This document shows positions 19,508-50,700 of a stretch of 64,000 nt of DNA, piece by piece (within the stretch, counting starts at the first letter, position 1; each line of letters begins with the position of its first letter). The translations under genes were made by a program, and so were the position numbers. Under the pieces are notes generated by a model. The model had not been told where the DNA came from and did no database searches. It saw only the letters and a list, made by a program, of their open reading frames with translations. The stretch lies in contig CAUJLY010000004.1 of NCBI GenBank assembly GCA_963281155.1, positions 3,782,001 through 3,846,000 of the forward strand, read 5' to 3'. Source of the DNA: Rhabditophanes sp. KR3021. Lineage: Eukaryota > Nematoda > Chromadorea > Rhabditida > Alloionematidae.

Positions 19508-22500
19508 ATGTCCATTATTCCTGATGATTTTTTAATTATCTATGGAAGCCAGACCGGACAAGCTGAATCTATTACTCAGCAGATCCAAGATAGATGCATC
19601 AATGAAGGCTTTCGCCCACGTCGATTTTGTATGTCACAGACAGAAAAACAGGTACTTGTTGGCTATTACTAGTAGATTTTAAATTATATTTCAGTTCAAC
19701 ATTGAAACAGAAAAGTTTGTTGTGGCTGTCATCTCTTCAACTGGTAATGTATTTTTCTTTTGTGTTGTTCATAATCCTTGTGCATTTGATTTTTAATGTT
19801 TACTGTTATGGCTATACTGATATTTATTTTTACATATTAATTGTAGTTATTTAATAATTTATTGGGACATATTATTACTTTTATACTTATTATTGTTATT
19901 TTTAGCGGATGGGCAACCTCCAGATCTAGCCTGTAAGGCAGTTCGAAGATGGGCAAAAAAAGGTTTACCTGACGCTTGGCTTGCAAATTTGAATTACGCT
20001 TTACTTGGTAATTAATAGAGGCGCGGATCGTCCCAACTTTTGAATTTATATTTTTCAGGACTTGGAGATAGTAACTATAGTGCCTATCATAGTGTACCAT
20101 TAAAGTTGGACAAAATTTTAAAAGGACACGGAGCCAAAGCTGTTATACCAAGAGGGTTAGCGGACGATCAAGTTGGGTAAGTAGATTAAATTAATGATTG
20201 ATGAAGCATATTAATTCACACCTCTTTTAGATTAGAATTAGTTGTGGAACCTTGGATATCGAAGTTACTTGGTTTCTTAAAGGAAAAATCTGCTAAGAAA
20301 GAAGAATTTGTTATAATTGACAAAGCCGGAAGTGAAGACACAATTGTAAAATCCGATTCAACTATTACTTTTGTTGATATTGAGAAATCAATTGAACAAG
20401 TACAGCAAGAAATAGCGAACATGAGTGATACAGTCACATTAACTAAAGGATCTGACAAATTGACCCAAGAAAGCAATCTAAGAGTTCCAAAAGGATCAAT
20501 TGAGTATTTAGCATCCACTGTGAGTCATGAAAAATTTGAAGATCTTTCTCAGATCAGCTGGCAGAACAATTCCAAGTTTCCTGGACAAGGTGAATTTTTT
20601 AAACATCTTCAACAAACTTAAAAATATTTAGTTTGAAACGAAAAATTTATGAAAAGATAGAATTGGAAGATATTAATGCATGTATTTTCCTAAGAGCCAT
20701 AGTTGAGATTCTTTTAACAATACTTGGATGTTCCATATATATTACTTCGTTGGATTGTCCCGAAGCATCTACATTAGTTTATACATCGTGAAGGTTAAAA
20801 AAACTGCATACTCTAAGGCTAAAGCTTTATTACTTTGTTAGTTCGCCAATACACTTCATGATTTTCATCTGACTTATCTAAATCTTGAGAAGGTATAAAT
20901 ATATATTTAATTAGAATGTTTAAACTTACAGCATCATCTTCCGTAGCCTTCCAGAACTGTTTGACGATATAATCTTTTATTGATCCTTTGTAGTATGGAG
21001 GTGGGTTAGTTCCTACTTCATGCTGCTTGGCAGCAGCTCTTCTCATCTGGATGCAACTTCTATACAACATGTGCTCATTAGAGAATGAACCTTCACTGCA
21101 AAAAAGACATGGATGGGTGTAGGTCACTTTTTGCCTTTATTTTCTTTCAGTTCTTTGAGAATGTGCATCATAAGCTTAGCCAATTCCTCATCACTTCCCA
21201 TCTCAGCAACAAACTTAAATCTTAATTTACTTTTAGATTCTGTTTCTTCATAAGAAAGATGAGGAGTTTTCTTTAAGCGATGTTGTTTGAATCATTTAAA
21301 ACTTTTTTTTATATATTTGATAGTTGATATTTACCATACACAGCCACTCATTGCCTTGTTGTAGAATCTCTTCTCAAAATACAACCAGCATCTTGCTTAT
21401 CCTTCTTTCTTCCCCCTTCATAACTTTCTCCAGCATCCAGTTTGTGTTTTATGTTGGTAGCTTTATCAAATTAAAAAATACTTACTTTAAATGTCAAGTA
21501 AACTTACATTAAAAAACACTTTTCCATTAACATCTTTTAAATCAAATCTAATAATGATCTCTTATTCCAGGAAGTAACTTTTATGAAGCAAATGTTGTTG
21601 GGGTTGTTGATACAACTGGTGCTGACATCTCAGGTGTAAAAGAAAAACTGGAAATTCATTTGGAAGTAATGAGTGGGCATGATAGTCTATTAAAATATGA
21701 ACCAGGTTTGTTTGATAATTTAATACATTTATCCTTACAAATAATAATTAATAACCTAAGGATTAATCAGTGACTTTTCTTAGAGGAATTCAGAAGGAGT
21801 AATGTTGGACTGATATAATATAGACATCACATGTTCTTTCACCCACATTCAAGCCATTAAGCTCTTTCGTAATCCAATCGACATCTTTCTTGGCGTTGAA
21901 TATCTCTGCTTCAGTGAAAAGCTCCTCACAGTTTCTAAATCTTAAGTGTTGGTTGAGAATAGCTTTAGACGCATAATATCTTTTGCAGCAAGAACATTGA
22001 TAGTCTGTTTTAGTGATACAATAGTCTTCATAAAATGCAACGAAAGTTGGCATTCCAATTGTGACTTGTCGTTTTTTCAAGAATAAGCTTCATGAAATAC
22101 TTCCCCAACACCTTGATTGCTTTTGACGGAAACAGATTAAGTACACCGTCTAAACTGTTCCGGCGGACAAATTGGTATTGTTCTTTGTGGCAGCTATTAA
22201 GCACCATTTCAGCCATTCTCTCAGAAACTCCATTAAAAATCAGCACATTGACAACTTTCTTCTTGGTAAAGTCTTTCCACATTCTTTGAACTTTCTTGCT
22301 CATCTTAAACTTTCTAAACATGGCTCTGGAGGCTTCACTTCTATCGTTACTAAATCTTCGAACCATGTTATCAATCATGTCAATATAGTTAGCCTCAGTA
22401 TTTTCCTCCTTCGTGAAACAATAGACTGTATAATCTCCATTCAAAGCGCTTTCATGTGACTTGACTTGTTTTTTCAACTCCTTTTCGGATACTTGAAATA

Positions 22501-25428
22501 CTGTTGTGTTTTTTCTTCATTCTCTTTGTCCTTTTTCGGTTCTTCAACCATCTTCATGACAGCTTTCGACTTGTCTTGCAAACCATCACAAATAAAATTA
22601 TTTGCATGATCTGGTGATGAGCCAACAGGAGGACAGAATTCACAAATCACCGTCTTCTCTTTGCTGTTAACCATTCTCTTGTGATGATGATAGGCATCAA
22701 TATCAACCGCGTGAGCTTGTAAAAACATGCGAAGTGTTGTCGATGTTGATCCTTCGAAATTTGATTAATTTCTCAGACTATTTAAAGCCTATCTAAACTA
22801 GCGGTAGTTACATCATTATCAGAAACTATGGTATTAGATCCACTAAGTTGTGACCGTGACTTTTTCAATTCCTTCCTGAAATTAGCATCATATAACTTTA
22901 ATTCTTCTTTTGATCCTAGAGAAGTGACTTCCATCACATTCACAATACAATTGTTATTATATAATTTAATAGTTTTTTTAACTTACCAACTTCCATTAAC
23001 TTATCTTCCTGCTCATCACCTTTTCTAACTTCAGTATCATCTGCCTTAGTCTTTCTTTTTGTTGATTTATCAGTCATTATAAATTAAATTCACCAGAAAT
23101 GAGGCAATGTTGTGCAACTGAAATTAATGAGTAATAAAATTAAACTACGGATTTAGCGCGATGACACGTAAAGTGCCTTTCAGCTATATTCATGTTTTGA
23201 GTGTGCAAAGTATTAAAGAATAGTTGATATACAGTCACTATAATTCAAAGACTTATTAAAAAGTATAAAAGTTTATTTCCATATATGTAACGATAAATTA
23301 CGCTTAAAACACATTTTAAAAATGAATTGTTTAGGAGATTCATTTTACTTTATAATACCAAACAAGGAAGATGAAGTTGATGAATTGCTGAGATTGACAA
23401 AAATGACTGCTATTAGCGATCAAAAGTTAGAAATTTCACTTTTGACAAATACTGAAAGAACGAATGCCCAATTACCAGAGTATATTCCTAAAGTTTCAAC
23501 ATTGAGATACATATTTACCCATTGCCTTGACATTAGAAGAACTCCCGGACGCCCAGTGTTAAGAATATTAGCTGATGGTTGTCAGGATGAGTGTGAAAAG
23601 CGACGACTACTTGAATTATGCTCAACACAGGTAAGTTGACAAAATTTATTCAAAGAAAAACAATTAAAAAATAGAGCATTGAATATGCTTTTGAAAATTT
23701 GTTTAAAAGCAATATGACTAATTCTCTTGACGATATCTAGATGTCTTAAGCACATAACATGATTGGATTGGTTTGAATCATCTACGCTAGTTAAAACACA
23801 TCTAATGTCATATATAATGGCTTATTTCAGACTTAGAGCTTGATTAATTTGTATATCATCAACAATCTTTCCAAATACTTCTAACTCTATATTCTTTTTG
23901 ATCCAAAGCTGAATTTAGAATTAACATAGTTTATACAATCTCCAATAGCTAATGCCGTTGCTTGATTAAATGAGTCTTTAGTATATACAGCTTGTACAAG
24001 AACTCCATCTTCGAAAATAAAGATTGCCTATAAGGATATAATTATACTTGGCAGCCAGAGTTCCAAGACGAGACTTCCTGTAAGCAAAATATATTTATCT
24101 AATACATTTTCCTTAAAATCTTGAACACTATCGTCGTATAAGAAAGTCTTAGCATCATTTGTAAACCTGACTTAAATTATTTACTACAACTAAAATTGAA
24201 TTAATATGTTGATTAGTTGTTTGATTATTACCTGCTACTTCGTCATTTTGACTTATGGTTTGATCTCTTCTTAAGCTTGGAATTACAACTAAATGTGGCA
24301 CGTTCTTTGATGATTCACTACTTCTATTATGCGGTCTTTTGATTGTGTGAGTATCAAATAATTAATCTAATGCTTATCCAACAGTCAAACGATTTTGTTC
24401 AACTTGAAACACTCAAATCTAAATTTACTAAACCAAATTACTCGCAAATTTTTTATATTAATAACACAATTGATACAGGGTATGGCTGAATTTAATAAAC
24501 ATGTTCGGTCTGCTGGCATTACATTAACGGATGTTCTGATGTCATTTCCATCTTGTACACCAAGTGTCGATAGATTAATTGGTAAGTTTTTGACATCTTA
24601 ACTTTAAACAAAAAGCTTAACTTAATATGTCCTGGTTTTAAAATGTACCATCATAATGAAATGTGTTTTTTAGAACTACTACCTCGACTTATTCCACGTC
24701 CATACACAGTTGCTTGTCATCATTCACAATGGGGAAACAGATTACGATTTGTGTATTCTATAATGACATTTACGGCCGAAGAAGGTAGACAATATGAAAG
24801 AACGGGATTAGCTACTGGCTTTTTGAAAAAATTACGAATTGGTGACAGAGTCAAAATGGCTCTAAAGGAAACATCAAAGTTTAGGCTACCGCCGATATCA
24901 ATGGACACTATTACTGATGGTTATGATATTCCATTGTTAATGATTGCTCCTGGAACTGGCGTGGCCCCTTTTGTTTCTTTTTTGCAAAAAATTCAATCAC
25001 TTCAAAAAATTAAAGTTGACAAAAAAGATGGTGTCAAAAGATACCTTTTGTATGGATGTAGAAACTTAAAAAAAGAGTTTTTATTCAAACCTGAACTAAA
25101 AACATTCGAACAATTGGGCTGTTTAACAAAACTATTTTTGTGCGAATCACGCCCAGACAATAATAACAAACAAATTGATAATCATCATCCATATCCGAAA
25201 CATGTTCAGGATATCCTTCTTTCAAACAAAGAACTTGTAGTTGACTTTATCAAAACTGAAAATTCGCGCATTTACCTTTGTGGTGATGGTATCGGAATGA
25301 GCAAAGATATTTTTGAATGCTTTGTTGGACTAGTTATGGAAGGGTTCAACTTGGACAAGATGGAAGCAATCAAATATGTTAATGAAATGAAAAAGCAGGA
25401 ACGTTATATTGAGGATGTGTGGTCTTAA
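19508..25428 (+). CDS. mtrr-1 (MTRR): Methionine synthase reductase (diflavin reductase)
   Basis: Nine exons: 19508-19651, 19695-19743, 19906-20007, 20059-20176, 20231-20589, 21571-21705, 23335-23630, 24479-24581, 24674-25428; phases agree throughout; 686 aa (human 698). NADPH-FAD-FMN enzyme that reactivates methionine synthase by reductive methylation of cob(II)alamin. Sequence: FMN-binding flavodoxin module (IIYGSQTGQAES near residue 10, STADGQPPD, GLGDSNYSAY, ADDQVGLELVVEPW), an FAD-binding module with the extended helical insert (DSFYFIIPN, RPYTVACHH), the NADPH-site APGTGVAPFVSFL, YGCR, and the C-terminal ERYIEDVWS whose Trp stacks on FAD. LELCSTQ and LPRLIPRPY distinguish MTRR from cytochrome P450 reductase. 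Introns 5, 6 and 7 (981, 1629, 848 bp) each contain a different insert on the opposite strand. Confidence 0.95.
20830..21201 (-). CDS. Nested LYR-motif-like small protein in MTRR intron 5, antisense to host
   Basis: A three-exon model on the minus strand fits phase: 21201-21128, 21095-20930, 20877-20830, giving 95 aa. The middle exon reads MLYRSCIQMRRAAAKQ, then PPYYKGSIKDYIVKQFWKA; the last exon adds ISQMKIMKCIGELTK. The L-Y-R start, the later YY...IKDYIVKQF helix and the final helix resemble the LYR (complex1_LYR) family of mitochondrial assembly factors. Intron 1 would be only 32 nt (GTGACC donor, TTTTTTGCAG acceptor), which is weak, so the 5' end is uncertain; the frame is also open further upstream. 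The middle and last exons with a 52-nt intron are better supported. Family call is by pattern only. Confidence 0.4.
21780..23280 (-). pseudogene. Family A element, copy 1: zinc-finger protein gene remnant in MTRR intron 6
   Basis: A minus-strand multi-part reading frame lies wholly inside MTRR intron 6. Start ATG about 23077 (MTDKSTKRKTKADD), a donor after about 30 codons, then an acidic/basic exon near 22930-22800, then 22728-22474 (Cys motif CEFC), 22477-22028 and 22080-21790. The last part has CSCC followed by HLRFRNC, a C2H2-like finger. The nearly identical order DYQC-x-CC, RNC, NVGER in copy 2 (46987-47656) shows one family. Breaks: a frame change at an A6 run (22509-22514), a +1 change at 22072-22077 that copy 2 shares, and loss of frame after NVGERTCD, so the GIY-YIG-like end is missing. 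About 150 bp upstream (23128-23280) also resembles copy 2. Likely decayed. Confidence 0.6.
23860..24343 (-). pseudogene. Family B remnant, copy 1, in MTRR intron 7, antisense to host
   Basis: Minus-strand sequence aligns by eye with 53743-54070: the block PSLRRDQTISQ (here) versus [11 protein letters not shown], an AT-rich gap like the intron of copy 2, then NNLSQ versus NVLSQQ and QDFKENVLDKY versus [11 protein letters not shown]. The position equal to the copy 2 start codon reads ATC, and several stops and frame changes follow, so this copy is dead. It lies in an 848-bp intron whose neighbours are about 50-100 bp. The family is not recognised. Confidence 0.5.
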
Positions 25429-28400
25429 GTTTTCAAACAATCATCTTAACACCCACCCTATAATTGATTATATGTTAAATCAAATTATTTTTATTTTCAA
25501 ACCATACGCATTAAATTAGTATCCTATGATTTTGTAAGCACAATATGTACACTCATCTATTTAGCATCACAATTTGAAAGCTACATTAAGTAATGTTTTT
25601 GCAATATGTTTAAATAAAGATGATAAATCATTCGGTAATAAATATAATTTTTTTCTAACAAGAACAGAATAAATAACGTTCCATTTATAGATAACTTAGA
25701 TCATATATGCAATATAAATATTTATAATTGATGTCAAGACTGTCGATCAGGTGAAAATATTTCTTATACAAATTACCCATGCTTTCTCGTATGCCGTACA
25801 TAAATCTGTCAAAACAATTATTTACAACAATATACAAATAATCACACCTACATATTATATTATATCATATCAATGTTTACTCTTTGATAAATACTATCAT
25901 TTTTACTAAGGTACAAAATATTTGTAACATATTTATGACATATTTTTAGATATTGCTATGTCTATACTTTCATTAAATACAGAAAATAACATTTTAAAAT
26001 CTTCATAATTAAAGGGCAAATGTCAACAGTTCCTTATCATAATGAAATGAACTTCATTTTGAAAAAGTTAGTTTATGTGTGACTCGAATAATCCTACTAT
26101 TTAATTCTTCATTAATCACCGCATCACTTTTTTTAAATTAAAATATAGTTAGTTATTGCTTCAATAGTGAATGAAGTGTATTATTTTTGAAATGGATTAT
26201 TTTTAAATAATATATTGTTAATTTTTTAAAAAGTAATATATTGTTAATTTTTTTAAAGTAATGCATTTAATATTTCATTTCAAATTTTATGTCATTTCAA
26301 ATGACAATATTTATGCTTTATTTAAAAAATCCATGTTAATAATAGACATGCTACATTTATTTTTAGACTATATTTTTTAGATACATTTTTAACATTACAA
26401 TTAAGTTTGTTCATCTTTAAGTTTATGTAAAGTACGTGGTACTTCTTGTATGCTATAGTTTATTTATATGTGTATTTATATAAGGACTCAGGTAAAGCTT
26501 ATCACAAGTAATAAGAATCAAATTAATCTAATATTACCACGTACATCGACATTAAATCCATGGTAACAAACATTTTCGAGGATCTTTCTTGACACCTACA
26601 CTAATAATGTGGTAGTTTTGATTGTCACAAAGCACACAATAGATTTCAAAGCACATTTCATTAAATTTTATATACAAACAATAAAGTATTAATTTTTTAG
26701 ATTTGGATTTGTGTAAAAAGAACATTAATTGCAAATGAATTTTAACCTCGATTACATATTAAAAGTTCTTTTATTTGGTTAACGGAAACAAATCACACGG
26801 GGTAAGCTACACTACTAACAATAAATAAATACTAGAAACATGGAAAATTACATGATCATGAAAGTAAAAACAATTTGTAATATCACGTTAACTTCATCTA
26901 ACAATGAAAAACTTTATCTCAATATGATCAGAAAGTTTTTTATTTGCGTTAAAGAGACAGGATAATAATAGACTGGTTTGAGGGAAAGTAAGCAAAATCA
27001 TCTTTGTTTAGCCTCAAAATATGAAAACTTATTAAGGCGATTGAGATCAAGATTATCCTCGATTTCCGCTTCTTTTTAGTCAATGTCCACTACCGGCTCG
27101 TATCTTATACCCATAAAAAATTTTTTTAACTACTTACTTATAATACTTTGTAGTTGTTGGCTATCTGGTAAGTGGTACGTTGATCATCGACGTCAATATA
27201 GACAAAGACAAGGATTGGATTGTATAATATAATGAATTACCAAATCCCTTGTCCAAATAATGATACTTGGATTAAACAGTTTTCGGGATGGTGCTATTGT
27301 AGTTCCTTAAATTTGTATGAATTCACTGAAACTAAATATGTTTGAGGTATGGGCGAATAAGCTTATTTAAAACAATTCTTTGAATTGTAAACGCCTATCA
27401 ATTTGGGTACATATAGCTCGAAATTAAAATTTATTATTTCATATCTTACAATTTTGAGTAAATTTGATAAACTATTACTCAATTAAAACCTGTAGGTCAT
27501 GCATTATTTACTATATTTAATTCTACTACTCATAATTAAACATTTAAATTACAACACTATCTCACAAATTAGCCTCTAATATACATACTTATTAGTATTT
27601 TTCATAATTGTATTTGAACAATTGGCTTCATATTTAGGCCTATTTTTTGAATAAACGTAACATGATGTGACTAATCATCCTACGTTTGGGTCAGAAAATA
27701 TATGGCTTTGAAAATATTATCCACAAATACTTTGATAAAAATAATCGTTTCATGTCAAAAATATAGCTAAGAACAAGCTCAAAGAGATTGTTAAAAATTC
27801 ATCTTTTCAGCTTCCGAGATGATCTTCTTTGGTTTTCTTTTTTTATTAAACAATGCATATTATTACTTATTCATATTTCCTAATAAACAATTCAACAATA
27901 ATTTGATAATTAATTAAGAAGAATTTGACGTGGATTTATGAAAATCAACATATCCAATTTATATTTATATTAATATTTTTAGATTACGTATATTGCAATA
28001 TAGTTTTCACTAGATTATTACGCTTTTATTTTATGAGATGCGATATCTTTGATCAGATGTTTTATACTGCTTTTTGTATTAGTCCTTATGATCACTTCGT
28101 ACATTTATGTTCTTTAATGTTCACGACCATTGCCATTAGTTGTGGTAGTTGTGAGTGTTAGATAATATTTATATCTTACAGCTGTTTTAACTGCCTTCAA
28201 TGTATTTATGAGTGTGAATTATTTTTTAACATCTTATGTTATGGTAGGAGTGATTTTAGTAGGGACAAACGATTTTTCTGGTTCAGTCAAAAATGATGCA
28301 ATAATAGTATATCTAGTCTGAGGCGACACTGATTTTTAATATCAACAAATAAGGGCTTTATTTGACGCAATAATGACATTGACTAGATCAAAATATACAT

Positions 28401-29196
28401 ATTAGGACATTGTATTTCTAGTATAGCCAAAATACTCCTACACTTTCATTTCGGGTAAATAATGGTATGTCAAAAATGTACTTAATGAATGTTAATAAAT
28501 TGTTTTTATTAAATTTACCACACTTTTTGCAACACATCTTACTTTCTTGCAACTGTATACGAATCTTATAGCCTATTAGATGATAAAACCCTGTTTTTAA
28601 AGTTCTGTTACCATTATTTTGATTAAGAAAGTTAGGATAGCTTGTGAAAACAAGCTTGTATCATAGTTTCGGAAAGAGAAATCATTCTCTATTAATTGGG
28701 TGATGTTAGGGAGATTCTTTATCACTTTTAACATTCATTTTATTGAAATCATTAAAATTTAGATAATAGCATATCTATTAATATCCCTCATTCATGACAA
28801 TTTTTTATTAGAAAGTAAATTAATATGTATATTTATAAATTTCAATTATATTTAGAATACAGTTATTAGAACCTCTTTAGATGTATGATCAAACAATTAC
28901 AATATTTGCATACTTTTAAAATAACACCAAAAATAGATGTGATCCTCATAATATATAAATTTAATAATCGGTGTTGCGATATGTGCATGACCCTCCTCTA
29001 GTAGCTATCTGAAGATGGAAACATTTTTTATAATGGTTACACAGACTCATCATCATGAATATTGTTGGTGATTTTTATGATTTTATTTGTGTTTCAAATT
29101 GATGTGAATTATTCAGACTATCCACCTATTTGTACAAAAGACGTCTTATTTTTTTGAGTAGACATATTGCCTTGATGTTTTATATCCATAAAAAAC
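25429..29196. other. Gene-poor AT-rich region, about 3.8 kb
   Basis: Between MTRR (+) and the SLC17 gene (+). No coding, RNA or mobile feature recognised. A plus-strand frame at 27925-28161 and a minus-strand frame at 26552-26734 lack splice or similarity support. A short duplication occurs at 26206-26258. The right part may be regulatory sequence of the transporter gene. Confidence 0.5.
26206..26258. repeat. Short direct duplication, about 26-bp unit
   Basis: taatatattgttaatttttt occurs twice, separated by a few bases. Confidence 0.7.
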
Positions 29197-29455
29197 TTGC
29201 CAAAAAATTATCTTATCCGAGAATTTATATCACCTCAGACTTTCCAAAAATATCACCTATTCTTGAGTCTATATGAGTCACAAGCTTTCCAAAAATATTA
29301 TCTCATTCGAAAATTTATATTTCTCAAAGTTTATGAAATATTACCTCGAGTTTCTATTCATCACAAACTACTAGAAATATTGTTTAGTATTCTACTATTA
29401 CATCCATCACAAATTTATCCAAAATATTTCTTGATTCGAGGATTTAGATTATGCA
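29197..29455. repeat. Degenerate tandem repeat, about 43-47 bp units
   Basis: Five or six diverged units, each starting near (t)ccaaaa(a)tat and containing a t(c)ttg/tcgag core and a tatat.tcac tail, run up to just before the transporter start. The apparent 90-codon open frame over this stretch (MPKNYLIREF repeated as QKYYLIRKF and PKYFLIRGF) is explained by the repeat. Confidence 0.6.
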
Positions 29456-29479
29456 AAGATGTTTGTTAATATTTTATTT

Positions 29480-29486
29480 GTTTTAG
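29480..29486 (+). promoter_or_regulatory. Trans-splice acceptor one base before SLC17 ATG
   Basis: tttgttttag ends at 29486, ATG at 29488. Confidence 0.55.
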
Positions 29487-29487
29487 A

Positions 29488-31586: not shown

Positions 31587-31924
31587 TCACGTTGAAGCTA
31601 AAATCTTGAAAGAATTATGTTTGGTTGAAAGGCAATTATTGTTAACCAAGGAGTTATGATTTATTAATTAGTAGACATGGATGCACATTGCATTTGAATT
31701 TTTTAGATACGTCATATTTCGAGCTTTAATCTCCTGATTTTATAACTATTTATTATTTATATGTGTCCAGATCAATAATTGTCCTTGATTTTTAATGGAA
31801 TAAGGTAAACAAACGGGTTACTTATGTTTATTAAAATTTTATTAAAATAAAATATTTTATCTTATGATGTATGTTCTATTATAGTCTTGATTGTTTGGTG
31901 ATCATTCAACATAATCACGATTAA
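31587..31924. other. Convergent 3' intergenic region
   Basis: 338 bp between the SLC17 stop and the IFT121 stop, AT-rich with aataaa-like strings; nothing else seen. Confidence 0.5.
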
Positions 31925-36741: not shown

Positions 36742-36963
36742 TTTAACTTGATTTAGAAAGAAAATTGATATAACAACTATTGGACATGTACAAACGACCC
36801 GTTACTATGGAAACCAAATGAAGTATTGGAAAAGTATTAGTTTTGAATAATTATGAATACGCAAATACTACATTTGTTTAAATCAACTTTTATTACGTTT
36901 GAAATTTTTAAATAAATTAAAATGGGAAAATTGTCATATTCAATTATTAAAAAGAATCTTTGA

Positions 36964-37345
36964 TTATTGCAATTTCTTGGCTTTGTTTTTCTGAAATGGA
37001 CGTGACAAATAATGACTTAGAGTAATCAATCAAAGCATTGATACAAAACTTACACAATTGCATTTCTTCTTATTTTTCTTAACTTCCTTTTTACCATTTT
37101 TGTGATGATCTTTCTTGTGACGTTGGTGTTTACCTTTTCGATTTTTAATTTTACCGTCCTTCTTTCCTTTTCTTATTAGTTGCCGGTTCAATTGCGTCCA
37201 AAAGTTGATTCGAATTTTCAGTGACCCCTTGCTCGGCAACTGCTTTTTCATTTTTCCGTCCTCTTCCTTTGTTAGTTGGATTGGCATGCAATAAGTTGAT
37301 TACCAACCCAATTAGTACGAAAACATAGATGAAAAGTAATTTCAT
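36964..37345 (-). CDS. Small secreted Lys-rich peptide precursor (possible frame break)
   Basis: ATG at 37345 starts a clear signal peptide (MKLLFIYVFVLIGLVINLLH, residues 1-20, cleavage near HAN). Basic sequence follows (TNKGRGRKNEK), then an acidic middle. In the first frame it stops after 64 codons, but a +1 shift at the short A-run near 37168-37171 continues into an extremely Lys/His-rich segment ending KKKCNC at a good donor (37054/37053, GTAAGT). A phase-0 second exon 36990-36964 (TTTCAG acceptor) adds KNKAKKLQ and a stop. The phase match across the intron argues that the shifted frame is real. Function unknown; a dibasic-rich precursor could be processed, but no repeated peptide is seen. 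Confidence 0.4.
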
Positions 37346-40300: not shown

Positions 40301-40387
40301 TGAAGTGACTTGTATAAATTGGTAATTCCATTTCAGAAGTAATACTTTAAACTCATCTTTTATTTAACCGCCATCAATCTATTTTGA
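37346..40387. other. Gene-poor AT-rich region, 3 kb
   Basis: Between the Lys-rich peptide gene (-) and the small membrane protein gene (+). Contains an imperfect hairpin near 37876-37900 (ctcatacactt / aagtgtgag). A minus-strand frame at 38808-39035 has no support. No RNA gene recognised. Confidence 0.5.
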
Positions 40388-40392
40388 TGCAG
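40388..40392 (+). promoter_or_regulatory. Candidate trans-splice acceptor for the 40404 gene
   Basis: ttttgatgcag ends at 40392, 11 bp before the ATG at 40404. Confidence 0.35.
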
Positions 40393-40403
40393 TCAAGTTT
40401 GTG

Positions 40404-40904
40404 ATGGATTTTATTTTTTTAGCAATTCCTTTATTTCCAATCATAAAATGCGCCTCAATTTATGGCCATAATACTAATAATGACTATTATCGTAATCGAC
40501 AACAAAACGTAGAACGTCGATTAGGAGCAATGGAAGAAAACTCGAATGTAGCTTTTGGACCAGCTATTCATACTTTCGATTCAGAACATGGATGCCAGAT
40601 ACGTTGTGCTACCATTTGCGTTATGCACAAATTTACCGACTATAATAGTAATAGATTTATTTGTAGCCCATCAGAGGTATGAATTAAATAAATAATTCTG
40701 GATTGCTTAAATATTTTGTGATAACATATTATATTTCAGAACAAAAATGACATTTTTTCAAAAAACGAAATGGATTACGAAAGTTACGTCTCAAGCCAGT
40801 CAAGCATATTTGCCAATCAAACTCTCTTAATAGTAATTCCATTGCTGATACTATTTTTAATAATATTAGTTATATTGATTATTCGAAAGTCGTCAAATGC
40901 ATGA
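40404..40904 (+). CDS. Small type I membrane protein, unidentified
   Basis: Two exons, 40404-40676 and 40740-40904 (donor CAGAG|GTATGA, acceptor ATTTCAG), 145 aa. Signal peptide (residues 1-17, MDFIFLAIPLFPIIKCA), an Asn/Arg-rich ectodomain with four Cys in HGCQIRCATICVMH and FICSPSE, a second stretch with one N-glycosylation site (NQT), then a strong membrane span near residues 117-139 and a short basic tail RKSSNA. A cell-surface or granule role is possible, but the family is not recognised; a gene with this splice structure and topology is likely real. Confidence 0.65.
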
Positions 40905-43420
40905 ATATTTTTTGAAATTTGCATAACTCATCTCAATAATTTTCCTCCGAGTCCAAATTAATCCGAGTATCTCAATAAAATTATGAAAAATGGCTTTCCA
41001 AAACGTGCACTCTTTATTTATATCCTAATAAATTATTCTACTTTGGTGTTTTAAACAAAAATTTGCATATATAAGATTGATGACAAATCTTGAAATTTCA
41101 ATCATGTTATGGATATGATACTGTCAATCGAGGATGGTGATGGATGATTCACGATATACCAATTCAACTTTTTAAAACTATTCAAATTTAAGTTAAAACA
41201 GATGTTTACGGCGTCCTTAACACTCTAAAGGGTATTAACTCAAATTGCCACATAACTTTAAAATTGATAAACTAATTCTGCTTAAACTAAAAATGTTTAC
41301 TCTCACAGACCATACTTATTTTCCAATTTCTTGTATGTTTTTGTCAAATGTATTGCATCAATTTGATAATTACCATTCTTCTAATAATAGGGAAAATTAC
41401 TCATTTTTATAATAACGAATTTTACAATAGCCAATCAAGTTTGATTGTGCAGGTATATTTAAAGCCAAACAGTATATTAATAGTACATATGATTCATCCT
41501 GTTAATCGTTTTTGCAACCAACTAAGGGCAAATGTCCAACCTCTATTAATAGAAATAACGAGTTTTTTTGTATAACCGATCAGAAATGATATACATCCCA
41601 AAAGTTGAATTTTCACCATCCTCTAAACAAAGAACATCATTTTTTTATTTATAAGCAAAAATATTTTTATTTGATAACTTTTTTAATAAAAAATGCAAAT
41701 TGAAAAACAAGTATTACCAAGTATTTATTTATTCATTTAATTATGTGAAAATGGTGAAGCACAAAGTTTTTTAATTTTAATAAATAATATAATATTTATG
41801 ATTGAATAATCAGATCAAAATTAAAGTGTTTTTACAGCACCAGAGTGGTATCCATCAAAATAAGCAGATGTTTTATGTAGGATGCAAAAACATATAACAG
41901 TAAATGACTAAAGTTGAAGTAGGTTGTTTTGTGTGAGGAACATATTTAATCCGCATTATAAACAATTTAGCTTCAAATATTTGATAAAAGAATTAGGTCT
42001 TCGTAACATTCAGTAGTTGATTTAGAATCCATGATGTGGTAAAATAAAGAAATGTGAGTTTGTGATGAATTCATACCAGACGTTCTTTTTATATACCAGA
42101 TTGTAATTGATAACACTGTTTAATTAGTAATACAATAAGCACAAAATGATGAGATAGGTGTGTATAAAATGTCCTTAAGGATATATAAATCTAAAGTTTA
42201 TCATGTGAATTAATAATCAATCTTATCACAAGTGTAATTGATTTAATCTTTAAAGGACATTATAATGGATTCTAAAATGAAATCATACATCAAAAGATCA
42301 ATTTAACGATATTTATTTAAAATCCATTTTGTTACAATTTCGCTTTTCCCTAACTGACATAACGATGTGTTATTTGACTTTGGGAAGCTTATGCCTATTA
42401 TAAGAAAATATAACATTGGAACAAAACAGTTTGTGCCTCACAATAAAACACACCAGACATTAATATGGATTTTCGTTAACATTTGGTGTGTCCCAATATT
42501 GTTGTATGTTCGAATCTAAAGATACAACTTATTGTCCAGGCCTAAAAATGAAATTTTTCAAAATTAGTAAATATGGTGGAGATTCATTTGTGATTGAAAC
42601 GGAAGATTATATTATTATCAATTCCATATAATATGTAATTATCTGCAAAACAGATCTAACAAATACTTTGACAATAATATCAACCAAAGCAACAACATTT
42701 TTGATAATTATAACTTTTATTTTGTTGGAATATACCTCTTGTATAATTATTAAAATAGATTTAGATCGATTCTTTGTTAATAAATGTATGATTATTTCAT
42801 TTTTAAAAAAGATGTGATTACTTTATTTTTTAAATGTTGATATTATAACTATAAGTCATACGAAGTCAATATTTTTTATATAATCCATATCATATTTTAA
42901 TACAATGTGCTTACATATTTACATTCAGTCATACCAATAGTTATTTTTATTTAGATAGTTTTGTAAACATGATATCCATGCACTAAATTCAATAGTAATT
43001 CAATACGAACTTTTTTAATAAACTTATGTTGTTAACAATCTAAATATTAGTTTAACTTTTTATCACTTTTTAGCAGATCATCGACAAATGTAAAAAAGGG
43101 TGTTTCTGATTAAATAATGTTTTATTGTTAGAGGATAGTTTTTACTTGCCATAAAAAATAGTTTCAAAAGAGTATTTGTGAAGCCAATTTGCTAACAGCT
43201 TTTTTGATTATAAACTTTTCATTACTTACGGAACTTGCTAATCTAAATATCAATGAAATGTAAATCGAAGCTAAGTGAATCATTTTATCAGTAAAATCAT
43301 GGGCGTGAAGAGCATATTGTTAAAGAAGGTTTTTTGAGATTAATTGTTTTGTAAATACCATACGTTGATGATATAATGTACAAACAAGGATAAAAGGTAT
43401 AAAAGTAGATATACTTTTAA
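40905..43420. other. Gene-poor AT-rich region, 2.5 kb
   Basis: Between the small membrane protein gene and the TTR-like gene. Several TTATCA/TGATAA strings occur around 42195-42240, which could be GATA-factor sites of a downstream promoter but are expected by chance in such AT-rich DNA. A plus-strand frame at 41348-41575 has no support. Confidence 0.45.
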
Positions 43421-44011
43421 ATGTTATTCAAATCAAAAATGTTTTTCTACTTTAAAGCTTCTATTTTGATAACCTTGTGTGCTATATGTTACGTGTCTTG
43501 TTTTACACAGCAATCAGTTGGAGTCCGTGGACGTCTAATTTGTGGCGATAAACCTTTGGGCAATACAAAAGTTAAATTATGGAACAAAAATACACTAGGT
43601 AAGGCTAGGATCTTTTTAAAATGGTAAATATTTTTTTAGGCCGAGATGATCAACTGGCTACTATGAAAACCGATGCCAATGGAAACTATGAATTGACGGG
43701 TGGGGTTGGAAGCATGTTTGGAATGGACGTTCATCTCAAAGTAAGTAAAAAAATATTTACTATAATATTTAATTTGTAAAATTGTAGATTTACCATGACT
43801 GTGATGATGGAATTAAAGTAAGTGAACTAAAATAATCATAACTTTATTAATCATGTATACAATTTAATTTAAGCCATGTCAAAGAAAAGTTGATTTGAAA
43901 ATTCCAAATGAATATATTACAAGAACGGACAAGGTCCAAAAGTTCTTCGATGGAGGAGTAATGAATATGATGTTTAAATTCAAAGATGAATCCAGAGATT
44001 GTTTGAATTAA
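43421..44011 (+). CDS. ttr family: Transthyretin-like (TTR/TTL) secreted protein
   Basis: Four exons: 43421-43598, 43640-43740, 43788-43817 (30 nt), 43874-44011; 148 aa from the first ATG, or 142 from the second in-frame ATG (43439), which gives a more typical signal peptide ([21 protein letters not shown]). Nematode TTL proteins are small extracellular beta-sandwich proteins, abundant in secretions. Signature: [56 protein letters not shown]. Cys pairing is as in the family. Regulatory context not evident; polyadenylation-like aataaa near 44080. Confidence 0.95.
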
Positions 44012-44793
44012 GCAACTCATCATCATACATGCTTTGTGTATAACAGAAAAATATATTAAGTATTTTCCTTTCATGTCTAATAAATATCTTTTATAATCAA
44101 CTAATGAACTGACTTTACTAAAAATTATTTGGATATGTGCTTATGTTTAGATCATTTCACGAACAAACATTATCCCGTGTATTTGAAATCATTTCAAATT
44201 TATTCATATAAGACAAAACAGTTATTTCTCAGACAATTGTTGCTGTATTCAAAAATATAGTAACAACTCATCAAAAACAAAATTTAAATTTTGCCTTATC
44301 TTAGCCACGTTATTTGTAGTACCTTCCATCTGTGAACCGTGCTGTGTCCAACGACCAGTTTCTATTTAGTTCGTCTTAAACCAACTACGATGGTGGTATT
44401 GTGTGATATAGTGATCTAGGATTGTTCTTATGCTAACTGATATTGCTTGACACGTGTTGTCGTTATTTATGATAATGCAATTGTTATATGTTATCTTTTT
44501 ATTGTACTAATTAGATTTACAATGTTATTATTGTTTAGATAGTGTGTTTGCTGATATATAGCAACCGTCAACGCCTTGTCCCCTCTTGTTAAGTGATTAG
44601 CCTATGATATATAGGGTAAGCCAATTTAATTATATAACATCATTATTATCATCTAATTTAGTTTTAATTAACAAGTTTCAAGTTCTAAGTAAATATATTT
44701 CCTTTGATCTACCTGTGACTTGGGTTATTGAACTTGCCGTTCGCCAGACATCTATAAATTCACTCATTTTTATTGTTGATATTATTTACAATT
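44012..44793. other. Intergenic upstream of ferlin, 0.78 kb
   Basis: AT-rich; presumably ferlin promoter. No element or RNA gene recognised. Confidence 0.45.
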
Positions 44794-47700
44794 ATGAAAC
44801 AAATTCTATCAAATGTGGTTAAGAAGAGCAAGAACAAGATGGCCGAAAATGTTCTAAAAGCTGCAGGTAAGAATACGAAATATAAGGCACTTGAGGCTGG
44901 AAAGAAATTGCCTTCAGAAGTTTCAAATGAATCTGGTGATGAAAAATCTGAAATGGCATCATCGGATAATGAAAGTGTAGCCTCAACCATCAACCCTAAT
45001 GATACATATTACGACAGTGACGTTGAAAGTGCATGTTTATATTCAAAATATTTATAATTTTGTTTTAGAGAGGTGGATCGGAGACCGATTCCTTGACCGG
45101 ATCAGAATGGGACACATCTTCCGTTTCATCTTCCAATTCTCAATTTGAAACAAAAAAGGAACGAAAGTTAAAAAACAGGAAAAGGAAAAATCTGGCTGAA
45201 GAAGTTGCGAATGGGGAAATACAATATGACATATTTGCAGAAAATCCTTCCATAAAACACTCATTTTATGTTTTGGTCAGAATTTTCGAAGCAAAGGAAC
45301 TGGCTAGTGATGACATTGACCCAGTTGTTAAAGTAAATTTGGACAAGAAGCAACGAAAAACTAACATTTTGAAAGAAACCAACAACCCGAAATTCAATCA
45401 AACATTCACTTTCAAAGTCAACGCTAACTTAGAAGAACTGAGTTCAAAAAATGTTGATTTTTCATTGTACTGTTCAAAGAAAATATTCAAAGATTCTGCC
45501 ATTGGAGCCTTTAGAATGAATCTTGGTCTAGTTTATAGACAAAAGGATCATTTACTTCCACAAAAATGGCTTTCACTATCTTCACCATTATTAAACGAAG
45601 ATGATGCTGAAGGTTCTGACGTCAGGGGATTTTTAAAAGTTTCTATTTGTTTGTACCACGAAAACCAGTCCCCGCCAAGTTTAATTGGCAAACCAACAGG
45701 GGAACCTGATGAAATTCTTCAATGCGCACAGAACTTGAACTACAACCTGAGATTACGTATTTTTAAGTTATCTCAAGTTGCTGATTTTATTAGGTTTCAA
45801 AGCAATGCAAAACAACCAAATCAACTAATGATAGAGATTAAGGTTGGAAAAATGATCATTTATACTGATTGTGTAGTTGCAAACGATGATACTCTTTGTT
45901 TTGGTGAGGAAATTTGCATTCCTATAACATGGCCAAGTGTCGTTAATGATGTAAGTAATAGCAATTATTTTTATTTTTATTTTGCAGATTCGTTTTCGTG
46001 TCATTCAAAAAAGGAACAAATTTCGCAAAAGAGTTTTGCTTACCTCCAAACTTTCCTTGAATTCGATTTGCAGATGTGGCAAAAAAGGATTTTTGCCTAC
46101 CTTTGGACCTTCATTTGTACCATTTTACGGACCTGACAAAATTAATGGAACATTAACTTTATCTGACATAAAAGCTATCAGTCAAGGTGCAATTGAAGGA
46201 ACCATATTCTGCGGAAGATTGTTTATTGATATTGCAACATTCGAAACTTTCCTGAAAGCACCTACAAAAAATGCTATTCCTACAATTGTTTGTTCAAGTT
46301 CTGCATCAAATGAAAATTGTTCACCATTCGTCTTGTCAGCTTCATTTTTTGGAGCAAATCAAATTCATCCTGATTTCAAAGAAAAGAATGTTCACTTTAC
46401 TGTATCTATTGGACATTATGGAAATGACGCTTACAATGATTTGCCAAACAATTCAAATTCAACATTGCCTGTTTTGCCATTTTACGATTCAATTCAATAC
46501 TATTCTATGCCATGGGGAAACCAAAAGCCTCTTTGTGAAGTAGAGTGTATGTTTGAAGATGTTGAGTTTCGTGCCGCCGAATCAAACATCTTATTTCAAA
46601 TAAGTGAATTTCTTCTGGAAAGTAAATGCGAACTAGAAATGATGATGAGATCCAACCCTAACCAAATTACCATTGCCGATAAAACACTTGATTGCTTTTT
46701 TGAAGCCACTGAAGCATTTAATTCCCTAGCTGATTTCAATACTGAATCAAACCGGAAAAGGTATGGTGATAGACTTACAGAACTCGATTATTGTCTCCAA
46801 AATGCTCGTTTTGCTGCCTTACAAATAATTGCAAATGATTTCAATACCTTCAAAAAGGATAAAAATGATGTGGATGACATGGGTGAAAGATGCTTAAACC
46901 TCATCATTTCAGTTTCTGCCAAGCTAAAGAAGTTATCGGTTGATACTCAAATATCTATTCCTGGTAAGACTTATTGTGAGAGACATTTAAACATAGTAGT
47001 CGAAAATGTGATTTATCATCCTTATAGTAATAGGCCGTGTAGTCTTGCCTACATATAGTACATGCTTCTTTGCATCATTAGTAGATATAAGTTCAGATGA
47101 AACAATGTCTGGATTGATCATGATGTAAATGTCACATTCTCTTTCACCCACATTCAAGACATCAAGTCCATCCTTAATCCATTCAGCATCTTTTTTATTG
47201 TTGAATATCTCAGCAGCAGAAAGAAGGTCTGCACAATTTCTATATCTGAAGTGCTTATGGAGAGAATTTTGAGACAAAAGACATTCTTTGCAGCAATGAC
47301 ACTGATAGTCTATTTCTTCTGTAGAATAGTCATCATAATAATCAACGGAAGTTGGCAATCCAATTTCTTCTTTACCTTCTATCAATAATGAGTTGCATAA
47401 AGTACTTGCCTAATTCCTTAATAGATTTTGACGGAAAGAGGTTGAGTACGTCGTCCGTAACTGTTCCTGCACCCAAGTTGGTAATATTATTTGTAGCAAC
47501 AAGCAAACAACGCTCCAAAATTAAGGCCATCCTTTCAGACACTCCATCCAGATAAAACACTGCCACAACTTTCTTTGACTGTTTAAATTTTCTAGTTTTG
47601 GCTCTGGAAGCTTCACTTTGATGAACAGGAAATCTGAGATCCTTGTCATAGGTCATTCCACAACAATAACCTTCTCTTTTTGCCTCATCTTTTTAATGAG

Positions 47701-50700
47701 TAATTAAATAAAGATTTAAACACGATACACGTAAAATGCCTTTCATCTATATTCATATTTCGAATGTGCAAAAGTTTTAAAGAACGGATAGTATACAGTC
47801 ACTGTAGTTTAAACATTTATTACAAAATATAAAAGTAGTGACCCCCACAAACAAATCATTTTCCAATGCAAACGTTGGTAACAATTCATTCCAGATGTTT
47901 TGATCACAATGTATGCAAGTGAGAAATCAGTTGGATTTAAGAGAATACCTATTTCGGAATTGATTTATGTAAGCAATAATCGGGCTTCAGGTAATGGCAA
48001 GTACATTGGAAAAATTACTCCGATCCATTTACAACGTATAAACCAAGAGCGTAGTAATTACAAAGAAGATGATATTCCTGCTATTCTTCTTTTAAAGCTT
48101 TTTTTCAGCAAAGTTTCAAAGAAAAAAAGTTTCAGCAAAATAGTTCTTCCTGGGCAAATAAGATATTATGCTGAATATTTTGAAAACCAGACGAGAAAGA
48201 TGTTCAACAAGGAATGGCAACAAGCAAAAACCAATCCGTTTGCAACGACTGATGTCACTGGCAAGATTGCTATTTATGAAAATAGTATTTCTCCTCCACC
48301 AGGCTGGAAATTCAAGGACGATTGGAAAGTAAAGCGATGTCATGATATGTGGGTAGGAGCTGACGCCGGGCACAATAAATTTGAAGATACGGTTTATGAA
48401 AAATATAGAAAAAATGGCAAGAAGTGGGAATTTAATGGATTTTCTGACTTTGATGGAAATTCGCTTGATCCAGAACTGATTGCGAAAGCACCCGAGGGTT
48501 GGAAATACGATGAAAATTGGAAAGTAGACAAAAATGTTCTTGGAGATCCAAAGGGCTTTTTGTATTCAATGAAAGAAGACTTTTGGACAAATCAAAATAG
48601 CTTAGATGTGACTGAAAAATTTACGCATGTCTTTAAAAGAAGGAAGTTGATTCGTATGAGGACTTTAAAGGCAGATACTAAGAGATTGGATCTTGATCAT
48701 TTAATTTCCTTTAAAGAAAAATTGGGCGAAACTGGTTGGGAATATTCTAAAAAGTTTGGCGAACCGATTCATGTCTTAGCCCAGAGTAGTGATCGATTCA
48801 GAAGAAGGCGTTATGTTAGGGAAATGGTAAGGGAAGAAAAAAAGACAACCAAAAATCAAATATCATTAGCAATACTGATTGTGTTTCGAACATGGTTGCC
48901 AGAATTTATGAAGTTCACGATACTTGCAGCATGTTTCAACTTCGAGTTTATGTTTTATGGGGAAGAGAACTTTTGGATAATACTTCAAAAATCAAACGTG
49001 TTTTTGTGAGAGTAACCTTTCTCAATAAATCTCAGGTAATTAAATTGATCAAACATAAACTAGCTTTATTGGGGTTAATAAATATGAAAACTCAAGAACA
49101 TAATTAAAACTTAAGTTAATAACAATTATACAACAATTTTTAACCCCTACGTCAATTTAGGAAAGTATTTACATAGGCAATTGCGTAAATCCGGTTTGGA
49201 ACGAAATGATTTTATTTGATAGAGTTTTAGTTCCAGGAAGTGTTAATTCGATGGTAAACCATCCTCCGTTGGTATTCGTTGAAGTAATTGGTGAAGCACA
49301 TAGTGAAGTAGAGATATTTTTAGGGCGCTTCACACTTAAGCCAAACTTTTCTATCTCAAATCAGAAGAAAAATACGGAATTATGTTGGTCGCCACTGATT
49401 TTGCCTCGAAATAAGTCATATGGAAGTTTGTTAATTGGCAGTGACATGCTTTTGATTAACAAAGAAACACAAAAAATTGATATTGATGACCCAGTTGCTA
49501 AGAAGGAAAATGCTGGAAGATATGAAATCCCAGTAGAGATTATGCCTCGATTTGTCAAATACAATATTCAAATATTATGTTGGGGAGTGAGAAATTTATC
49601 AAAACACAAATTATTGGCAGTTAAAAAGCCATTTGTTGAAATTTCAATCGGAGATCTTTTGGAAGTAACTGAATCTATAGAAGACTTGAAAAACAATCCT
49701 AATTTTTCAAAAAATTTAGTCTATTTCAAAAATGTTAGCTTGCCAGAACGTTTGTATTTTTCTTCCCCAATTATCTTAACTCTAAGAGATAAGAGAATAT
49801 TTGGGTCAAAACCAATAATTGGAACATCTCTCGTTCAGAATTTTGATCGCTTTGAAATTAAAACCAATGCTATTCAAAAACCTGTTCCGTTTTCTAGATG
49901 GATTGATTATGACAGTTTGATGTCCATTGAAATCAAAGCTTACGAGGAAGAGATTTTTAAAATGAATCTTGACGAGGAAAATGCAGATTCTTACTTTACC
50001 AAGTATAGAATTGACTGGTGGAGCAAATATTATTTTTCATTGGGTGAAAAGGACAAAGCACGTGGGTATAGTGAATCTGAGTTGGAGCCATTGGCTATTT
50101 ATGGACAATCATTGGAAGATTCTGATGAATTTAGAGGTTTTTGTGATTTTCTCCAAACATTCAAGTTCGGAAAAGTCAAGAAAAGTAACGGCTATTCAAG
50201 AAATGTAGACATCAAAGGAGAATTAAAAGGCAGATTGATTATTACTAAAAGTGAGGAACAAAAGGATATAGTGGATATAATTCCAGGAATCGAATTTGAA
50301 AAGCCAGAGTTGTGCATTGTGAGAGTCTATGTAGTCCGAGCTCATTCCCTTGTCACTACGAGAGGACACAAAACATGTGATCCTTACATATCCTTAAGAT
50401 GCGCCAATTTTAAAAAGATTTCACTGAAGAAAGAGTATGTTCCTGACACATTGGATCCTATTTTTGGTAAGCTAAGTTGAACTACAAATATGATTTATAT
50501 TAACATCTCGATAAGGAATGTAGAACTGAATTATTGTTATTTATGCTTTTTGTTAGTGAGATAGCAATATTTTGGGCATTTGTTTGAGTAACGTCAAATG
50601 AACAAGAATTAAAGCTTTTCATTAAAATAATACAAAAATAAGTTATGATTATTGATATTGCAAGCGCTCACCATGGAACTTTGTCAAGGTTTCGCCTTTT

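What the first reader, a model, noticed from the sequence alone, without database searches (positions are those of the whole stretch)
21780..47840. Dispersed family with a C2H2-like finger and a GIY-YIG-like end (family A)
Copies at 21780-23280 and 46987-47840 share a protein of unusual order: a conserved middle (SEASRA, GVSERM, LNLFPSK, LGKYFM), a DYQC-x-CC...RNC finger, NVGER, and in copy 2 a terminal YVGKTTRP...INH pattern resembling GIY-YIG nucleases. GIY-YIG domains occur in homing endonucleases, Penelope-like elements and repair nucleases; a zinc finger beside a GIY-YIG end in an intron-dwelling family could be a mobile or domesticated nuclease. I do not recognise it as a described element.
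Basis: partly seen in the sequence, partly recalled or inferred. Interest (0 to 1): 0.75.

Follow-up and report, generated by a model that had tools for sequence, protein, structure and literature searches.

The report
Nuclease genes that are worm introns
In the genome of a small free-living worm, many introns look like copies of one mobile element whose reverse strand encodes a two-headed DNA-cutting enzyme, which would link selfish "homing" genes to the spread of spliceosomal introns in an animal.

Summary
The two window copies belong to a dispersed family with at least 109 places in a 44.8-Mb genome that matches Rhabditophanes diutinus KR3021, a nematode.

Readable copies coincide with GT-AG introns, nuclease gene antisense to the host. 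Family sequence runs up to the splice sites. In 12 of 12 curated copies (of 57 held places, picked because both ends were readable), joining the exons restores host proteins (pyruvate kinase, ThrRS, ferlin and others). At 42 of 56 places one or both flanks read antisense with no contrary flank; none has both sense. Divergence is 3rd-codon-position biased. No linked reverse transcriptase, inverted repeats or consistent target duplications were found.

Best reading: an introner-like "spliceosomal homing intron" in an animal. Closest known: mirusvirus shintrons (PMC12768974) and introners (PMC9860276). Splicing, nuclease activity and intron gain are inferred, not shown. Both window copies are broken relics.

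The parts
21706..23334 (+). Host intron (P450-reductase-like gene) that coincides with family copy 1; the element gene is antisense (- strand)
   Evidence: Joining the exons gives LLKYEP[G]DSFYFIIPNKEDEV (coordinates); FAD_binding_1 in the 3' exon
23124..23272 (-). Copy 1: conserved 5' leader of the element (host sense: ends ...TATAAAAG)
   Evidence: 79% over 151 nt to copy 2; 40 genome matches to the copy 2 leader
22943..23083 (-). Copy 1: putative first exon of the element gene (MTDKSTKRKTK...LMEVG) followed by GTAAGT, perhaps an intron of the element gene itself
   Evidence: translation; the start and the splice are inference
22588..22644 (-). Copy 1: N-terminal C2HC finger, C-x2-C-x8-H-x5-C
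   Evidence: pattern scan and match to P0001 62-120
22031..22516 (-). Copy 1: first GIY-YIG domain, degenerate (catalytic Glu not recognisable)
   Evidence: 27 matches in the genome; 45% to P0001 143-271, where PF01541 is above its cut-off
21793..22089 (-). Copy 1: second C2HC finger (21928-21996, C-x2-C-x12-H-x5-C) and start of the second GIY-YIG domain, which is cut short
46964..47894 (+). Host intron (ferlin-like gene) that coincides with family copy 2; the element gene is antisense (- strand)
   Evidence: Joining the exons gives TQISIP[D]VLITMYASEKSVGF between open stretches of 336 and 370 residues
47693..47836 (-). Copy 2: conserved 5' leader
47836..47894 (+). Copy 2: acceptor-side end of the element (...ACAATTCATTCCAG), shared in variants with five copies in other genes
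   Evidence: similarity runs up to AG in six copies of this type and then stops
47375..47692 (-). Copy 2: first GIY-YIG domain, C-terminal part (Glu and Asn kept)
   Evidence: PF22945 LEM-3_GIY-YIG E 0.012, 16 bits, below its cut-off of 27; alignment
46990..47409 (-). Copy 2: second C2HC finger (47233-47301) and start of the second GIY-YIG domain (YVGKTTRP...INH); the rest of the domain is deleted
46965..46997 (-). Copy 2: family 3' non-coding sequence that reaches the ferlin 5' splice site
   Evidence: 33-nt match, 85%, E 2e-4, to the copy in the KCNH-like gene (L016), where it lies about 320 nt from the next matched stretch, so copy 2 has an internal deletion. In that other copy the stretch lies some 50 nt inside the intron, so the donor position differs between copies
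55902..56181 (+). Third family fragment in the window (C-terminal GIY-YIG remnant), not in the finding
   Evidence: tblastn with P0001 413-505, E 5e-7

Best explanation
This is a family of gene-carrying spliceosomal introns: selfish, introner-like elements in a nematode nuclear genome. The full-length unit is a GT-AG intron of about 0.8-2.0 kb in host genes. Its antisense strand carries a gene with its own leader, a short 3' end often with AATAAA, and a protein of two repeated modules (C2HC finger + GIY-YIG nuclease). Shown by sequence: the architecture, dispersal, antisense bias, coincidence of element ends with splice sites in the curated copies, 3rd-codon-position-biased divergence, and stops or frame breaks in many copies. 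Inferred: the spliceosome removes the element, so the host gene tolerates it; the nuclease cuts intron-free alleles or proto-splice-site-like exon sequences (exon 1 mostly ends in G, exon 2 mostly starts with GT); repair copies the intron into the break, which gives homing and, more rarely, ectopic spread; fixed copies then degenerate. R. diutinus is described as strictly parthenogenetic (PMC11258339, passages), so allelic homing would now be largely stalled, which fits the many relics.
For: Multi-copy: 109 places. Nuclease, domain 1: PF01541 above its cut-off in P0001 (25.4 vs 22.6 bits) and in 3 of 9 other family ORFs scanned (L075, L038, L043); at E<=1 PF01541 matches 12 of 22 aligned members. 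Domain 2, below curated cut-offs: PF19239 E 0.0011, TIGR01453 E 0.0023 (18 bits, cut-off 56); phrog_5356 E 1.2e-5 (no cut-off given). Element = intron: acceptor-side similarity stops at AG, donor-side sequence reaches GT, 12 of 12 curated junctions restore host proteins, a TRPM-like 13th. The deposited ThrRS of Rhabditophanes sp. KR3021 reads through the junction LNPG|DGAF. A movable unit that includes the donor: 8 matches, 87-99% identical to a 73-nt donor-end query, 5 of 8 from its first base. Antisense bias. 3' ends: AATAAA anywhere in 240 nt in 36 of 47 (random windows 0.35), antisense GTRAG in 23 of 47 (random 0.23). Codon-position mismatches 0.208/0.189/0.323 over 176 alignments. Nearest RVT_1 match 48 kb from any place. 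No Rfam match at gathering score in the window, none at E<=0.5 in L058.
Against: No transcript data, so splicing of the elements and expression of the protein are not shown. No DNA of a close relative, so intron gain is not shown. Target-site duplications are not supported overall (permutation p 0.07; one clear 7-nt case) and no terminal inverted repeats were seen, so the insertion chemistry is open. The donor lies at different points of the 3' sequence in different copies. The 12 junctions were picked from 57 held places because both ends and the host protein were readable, and two of them are paralogues with the same site, so there are 11 independent sites; the other 45 were not curated. An automatic junction caller agreed at both ends for only 6 of the 12. 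Domain 2 has no match above a curated cut-off of its own. Of the rows that cover it, the catalytic Glu is kept in 6 of 10 (domain 1) and 9 of 12 (domain 2) (by eye). The window copies show weaker codon bias than others (second finger pieces 0.19/0.20/0.24 and 0.19/0.27/0.29). Structure prediction failed (pLDDT 38). Strict parthenogenesis of the present host makes allelic homing hard today.
Confidence: 0.6

Rival explanations
1. RNA-mediated spread: the excised intron is reverse-spliced into other transcripts and reverse-transcribed by an enzyme supplied in trans; the GIY-YIG protein only helps maintain or home the intron.
For: In one subfamily the whole intron, donor included, recurs as a unit; antisense bias relative to the ORF; G|GT-like junctions; no inverted repeats; reverse transcriptases exist elsewhere in the genome (37 RVT_1 matches).
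Against: No reverse transcriptase in or near the element; many 3' ends sit beside a separate intron-like stretch, which recursive splicing would tend to remove; past constraint on the nuclease suggests a central protein role.
Confidence: 0.22
2. DNA-transposon-like introner: the nuclease acts as an integrase that pastes the element into exons, and only copies in spliceable orientation survive.
For: One copy (aspartyl-aminopeptidase-like gene) has a 7-nt direct repeat GGTAATG at both ends that supplies the donor (by eye); some known introners use such duplications (PMC9860276, passages).
Against: Intron-start versus exon-2 similarity over 12 copies is not significant (p 0.07); no inverted repeats. 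Intergenic copies, which this model predicts, were not searched for specifically; 8 of 56 places had no antisense flank call (6 unclear, 2 unclear/sense).
Confidence: 0.2
3. Elements inserted into pre-existing introns (nested genes or remnants of an unrelated transposon) and did not create the introns.
For: 13 of 47 3' ends (read by eye) lie directly behind a T-rich AG of a short intron-like stretch; the first ~85 intron bases of two pyruvate kinase paralogues are shared with each other but with no other held copy; the donor position varies between copies; ages of intron positions are untested.
Against: In unrelated genes family sequence supplies the acceptor region up to the AG and, in several subfamilies, the donor.
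Confidence: 0.22
4. Ordinary host gene family (LEM-3/ANKLE1-like repair nucleases) with pseudogenes.
For: PF22945 LEM-3_GIY-YIG matches 7 of 22 members at E<=1, best 7.2e-6.
Against: Best score just below the curated cut-off (26.5 vs 27); no ankyrin or LEM match in the two 509-residue ORFs; more than 100 dispersed places; curated copies coincide with introns.
Confidence: 0.04

Closest known systems
Spliceosomal homing introns (shintrons) of mirusviruses (PMC12768974: section 9 read, other passages)
   Same: GT-AG spliceosomal introns that carry genes for nucleases, 132 of 334 of them GIY-YIG; homing proposed for spread
   Different: Those are in viral genomes and mostly in virion genes; here a nematode nuclear genome, unrelated host genes, ORF antisense to the host gene, two finger+GIY-YIG modules. 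The orientation of shintron ORFs was not checked
Introners / introner-like elements (PMC9860276, passages)
   Same: One sequence family forms introns in unrelated genes, with similarity up to the splice sites; families without duplications or inverted repeats exist
   Different: This family codes for a conserved protein. That paper looked for mobilising elements with a transposase database; 'endonuclease' and 'nematode' do not occur in its main text
Penelope-like elements (recalled)
   Same: GIY-YIG domain near a Cys/His finger
   Different: No linked reverse transcriptase; coincidence with introns
GIY-YIG homing endonucleases of group I introns (TIGR01453; biology recalled)
   Same: GIY-YIG nuclease encoded by an intron; weak, sub-threshold profile match
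   Different: No group I or II intron RNA found; spliceosomal borders
LEM-3/ANKLE1 nuclease
   Same: Best Pfam subfamily for the first domain
   Different: Below cut-off; no ankyrin or LEM match; multi-copy

Membership tests
Introner | Many introns in unrelated genes share one sequence up to the splice sites | tested here: met
   (12 copies curated of 57 held places)
Introner | Introns newly gained (absent in a close relative) | not testable with these tools
   no DNA of a close relative was reachable
Introner | Target-site duplications or inverted repeats (present in some families only) | tested here: inconclusive
   1 clear 7-nt repeat in 12, permutation p 0.07; no inverted repeats
Spliceosomal homing intron (shintron) | Homing-type nuclease gene inside a GT-AG intron | tested here: met
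   by profiles and junctions only:
Spliceosomal homing intron (shintron) | No group I/II intron signature | tested here: met
   no Rfam match in the window (gathering) or L058 (E<=0.5)
Spliceosomal homing intron (shintron) | Cleavage of the intron-free site and copying of the intron | not testable with these tools
   needs biochemistry or crosses; the pyruvate kinase paralogue pair is only a hint
Spliceosomal homing intron (shintron) | Found in mirusviruses (as described so far) | tested here: not met
   the genome is a nematode's; no close relative of P0001 in viral contigs
Penelope-like element | Reverse transcriptase linked to GIY-YIG | tested here: not met
   nearest RVT_1 match 48 kb away
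LEM-3/ANKLE1 | PF22945 above curated cut-off plus ankyrin/LEM domains | tested here: not met
   best 26.5 bits vs 27; no ankyrin or LEM match in the two open ORFs
GIY-YIG superfamily | Profile match above a curated cut-off | tested here: met
   domain 1. Domain 2 only below cut-offs (phrog_5356 E 1.2e-5)
GIY-YIG superfamily | GIY-YIG fold | tested here: inconclusive
   AlphaFold2 on the window pieces gave pLDDT 38

The most novel reading that the evidence does not exclude
An autonomous, protein-coding introner in an animal: a DNA-level selfish element whose dual finger+GIY-YIG nuclease makes breaks at proto-splice sites and which creates new spliceosomal introns, antisense to its own gene. It would be a nuclease-driven engine of intron gain and, as far as the searches made here show, the first shintron-like system in a cellular genome. 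A subfamily carries a mini-intron and a zero-length exon (recursive-splice-like site) as part of the mobile unit.
Probability: 0.45. Interest if true: 0.92.

Novelty: new variant of a known kind. Interest (0 to 1): 0.82.

Why it matters
How spliceosomal introns spread is a long-standing question. Introners are mostly known as short sequences whose mobilising protein is unknown (recalled), and nuclease-carrying spliceosomal introns were reported in late 2025 from viruses (PMC12768974). A nematode kept on bacterial plates (PMC10676810, passage), with element-bearing introns in conserved genes, a nuclease that was under constraint and at least one long open copy, would make the mechanism testable in a laboratory animal.

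Tried and rejected
Organism first guessed as rotifer or orthonectid, and the absence of canonical SL1 read as "not a typical nematode". Both were wrong: a ThrRS exon is 100% identical over 410 residues to Rhabditophanes sp. KR3021, and assembly size, scaffold number and scaffold lengths match PMC10676810.

5' truncation as a retrotransposon sign: suggested by DNA hits piling up at the 3' end, dropped because copies with both intron ends exist and no reverse transcriptase is linked.

Structure: AlphaFold2 on the window's own first-domain pieces gave pLDDT 38, so no fold search was run.

Homologues: none at E<=0.01 for P0001 (4973 candidates) or alignment A1 (5923 candidates) among 5.8 billion proteins (word-based, so distant relatives can be missed); no confirmed close relative of P0001 in viral or prokaryote contigs.

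Automatic junction calling agreed at both ends for 6 of the 12 curated copies and is not used as a count. The background set of ordinary introns (21) is too small for more than a hint.

The counts 141 and 173 include one coordinate typed on the wrong contig (C4 instead of C1:4937786); the 109 used here does not depend on it.

Not in print, searched: introner + GIY-YIG, introner + intron gain + transposable elements (30), spliceosomal introns + endonuclease + nematode (52), shintron (53), GIY-YIG + intron gain + mobile element (55), recursive splicing + introner (56), Rhabditophanes + intron (85), Rhabditophanes + transposable element (89). The library is open-licence PMC only, and I saw listings for these, plus the passages named elsewhere.
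Full report
WHAT IS THERE. The two window copies exist as described, on the - strand, both frame-broken. Genome searches with copy 2 (140 residues), copy 1 (162 residues) and an open 509-residue relative gave 73, 27 and 88 matches at E<=0.001, which merge into 109 places at 2.5 kb. Counts are lower bounds, since only 84 of 753 first-look candidates were scored. A search with a second, divergent open ORF (L088) gave 74 matches, some of them at new places.

ORGANISM. A host exon next to one copy is 100% identical over 410 residues to ThrRS of Rhabditophanes sp. KR3021. The assembly (44.8 Mb, 6 contigs, longest 11.2 Mb; window GC about 0.32) matches R. diutinus KR3021 in PMC10676810 (44.8 Mb, 6 scaffolds, GC 32.16%; passages). 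It is a free-living nematode (recalled) of the superfamily Strongyloidoidea, kept on bacteria (PMC10676810) and described as strictly parthenogenetic (PMC11258339, passages).

PROTEIN. The open copy P0001 (C1) reads: finger C-x2-C-x8-H-x5-C; GIY-YIG domain 1 (about 148-270); finger C-x2-C-x12-H-x5-C; GIY-YIG domain 2 (about 360-460). Pfam PF01541 is above its cut-off in P0001 and in 3 of 9 other family ORFs scanned (L075, L038, L043). At E<=1 it matches 12 of 22 aligned members and PF22945 matches 7 of 22. Domain 2 is supported only below curated cut-offs: PF19239 E 0.0011 and TIGR01453 E 0.0023 (18 bits against 56), with phrog_5356 at E 1.2e-5. In alignment A1 (by eye) the presumed catalytic Glu is kept in 6 of 10 rows that cover domain 1 and in 9 of 12 that cover domain 2 (residue roles recalled). 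The second open ORF, L088, shares the C-terminal finger and GIY-YIG but not the N-terminal half. The fold was not confirmed.

ELEMENT = INTRON. In host sense, family similarity on the acceptor side continues through the leader (...TATAAAAG...) to a branch-point-like stretch and stops at AG|exon. One type ends ...AACAATTCATTCCAG, with variants, in six copies in different genes; another has ...AAATTACTAATAA... before the AG. On the donor side the stop codon is followed by a short 3' end, often with AATAAA, and then the reverse complement of a 5' splice site. AATAAA occurs within 240 nt in 36 of 47 3' ends against 0.35 of random windows, and an antisense GTRAG in 23 of 47 against 0.23. The donor does not sit at the same point of the 3' sequence in all copies: the 33 bases next to the ferlin donor lie some 50 bases inside the intron of the KCNH-like gene. 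For 12 copies in which both ends and the host protein were readable, out of 57 held places, joining the exons restores continuous proteins in 12 of 12: two pyruvate kinases (paralogues, same site), ThrRS, an AP-complex mu chain, a KCNH-like channel, ferlin, an aspartyl aminopeptidase, P450 reductase, a TM9SF-like protein and three others (apart from ThrRS and the FAD_binding_1 match, the names are my recognition). A 13th, a 510-base shortened derivative in a TRPM-like gene, does the same. The deposited ThrRS of the species reads straight through the junction. The other 45 places were not curated and are counted neither way. A looser automatic caller agreed at both ends for 6 of the 12.

ORIENTATION. 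A codon-usage score of the flanks, trained on 17 long ORFs of the window, gave for 56 places (one held place had no protein match; one holds two copies): both flanks antisense 23; one antisense and one unclear 19; both sense 0; mixed 6; both unclear 6; unclear and sense 2. Three of the "both unclear" places are antisense (aminopeptidase, KCNH, P450 reductase).

A UNIT WITH A MINI-INTRON. Eight places match, at 87-99%, a 73-base donor-side end that begins, in host sense, GTTTAAACTAACTC...TTTTAG|GTRAGTACTGG: a 41-base intron-like stretch directly followed by a strong donor, that is, a zero-length exon as in recursive splicing (recalled). In the four whose junctions I read, the similarity begins at or within a few bases of the exon border. 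I read 13 of 47 3' ends as lying directly behind such an AG; in some of them the short stretch is not shared, so it may be host intron that was the target.

SELECTION AND AGE. Mismatches by codon position over 176 nucleotide alignments are 0.208, 0.189 and 0.323 (alignments are not independent), so the protein was under constraint while copies spread. The pieces of the window copies that hold the second finger show it least (0.19/0.20/0.24 and 0.19/0.27/0.29). Many copies carry stops or frameshifts.

MECHANISM. The nearest of 37 RVT_1 matches lies 48 kb from any place; no catalytic-intron RNA and no terminal inverted repeat was seen. Exon 1 ends in G in 11 of 12 and exon 2 starts with GT in 8 of 12; a small automatic set of short introns gave GT in 3 of 21. 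One copy has a 7-base direct repeat that supplies the donor, but over 12 copies the intron-start/exon-2 similarity is not significant (p 0.07). Two pyruvate kinase paralogues carry family introns at the same site. Their four-fold sites differ at 39 of 69 and 40 of 67, yet the first 367 intron bases are 75% identical. This hints at later transfer between paralogous sites; but beyond those bases the two introns align with other family members and not with each other, and the first ~85 bases are shared only by this pair among held copies, so it does not prove homing. I favour nuclease-assisted homing and insertion, with RNA-mediated spread, transposon-like insertion and insertion into old introns as live rivals.

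NOVELTY. Mirusvirus shintrons are the nearest described system; [quoted passage not shown] Introners are reported from two animal groups in PMC9860276 (passages). A study of intron gain in nematodes mentions introners; the passages I saw name no nematode case, and neither Rhabditophanes nor Strongyloides occurs in its main text (PMC9169325). I found no report of either kind in Rhabditophanes (listings). The combination here is a new variant that joins the two kinds.

Noticed in passing
window 55902-56181 (+): A third, short family fragment (C-terminal GIY-YIG remnant) on the + strand; its host intron was not examined.
   Followed up: partly
window 20819-21291 (-): An antisense ORF with a C-x2-C-x8-H-x5-C stretch (CLFCSEGSFSNEHMLYRSC) just upstream of copy 1, like the element's first finger but without a match to P0001; possibly a diverged relative.
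   Followed up: partly
L088:81-1607: A second open 509-residue ORF with the same C-terminal finger and GIY-YIG but an unrelated N-terminal half; whether it lies in an intron is not clear.
   Followed up: partly
Contig C6 of G000: The family is sparse on the largest contig, about 0.8 places per Mb against about 7 on C4.
   Followed up: no
C1:2027167-2031200 and C3:4031618-4034839: Two anciently diverged pyruvate kinase paralogues with family introns at the same codon; intron starts are more alike than four-fold sites.
   Followed up: partly
window 23264-23271 and 47828-47835: The leader holds TATAAAAG in host sense, close to the acceptor, a TATA-box-like word pointing towards the downstream host exon (consensus recalled).
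   Followed up: no
C1:5775542-5782522 (ryanodine-receptor-like gene): At least two family copies lie in this one gene, among them the open copy P0001.
   Followed up: partly
G000, nine places at 135.9 bits: Nine equally scoring reverse transcriptase matches in open frames of 718-1377 residues suggest a young retroelement elsewhere in this genome.
   Followed up: no
G000, whole genome: The canonical nematode SL1 leader (recalled) was not found with up to one mismatch, although the genome is a nematode's.
   Followed up: no
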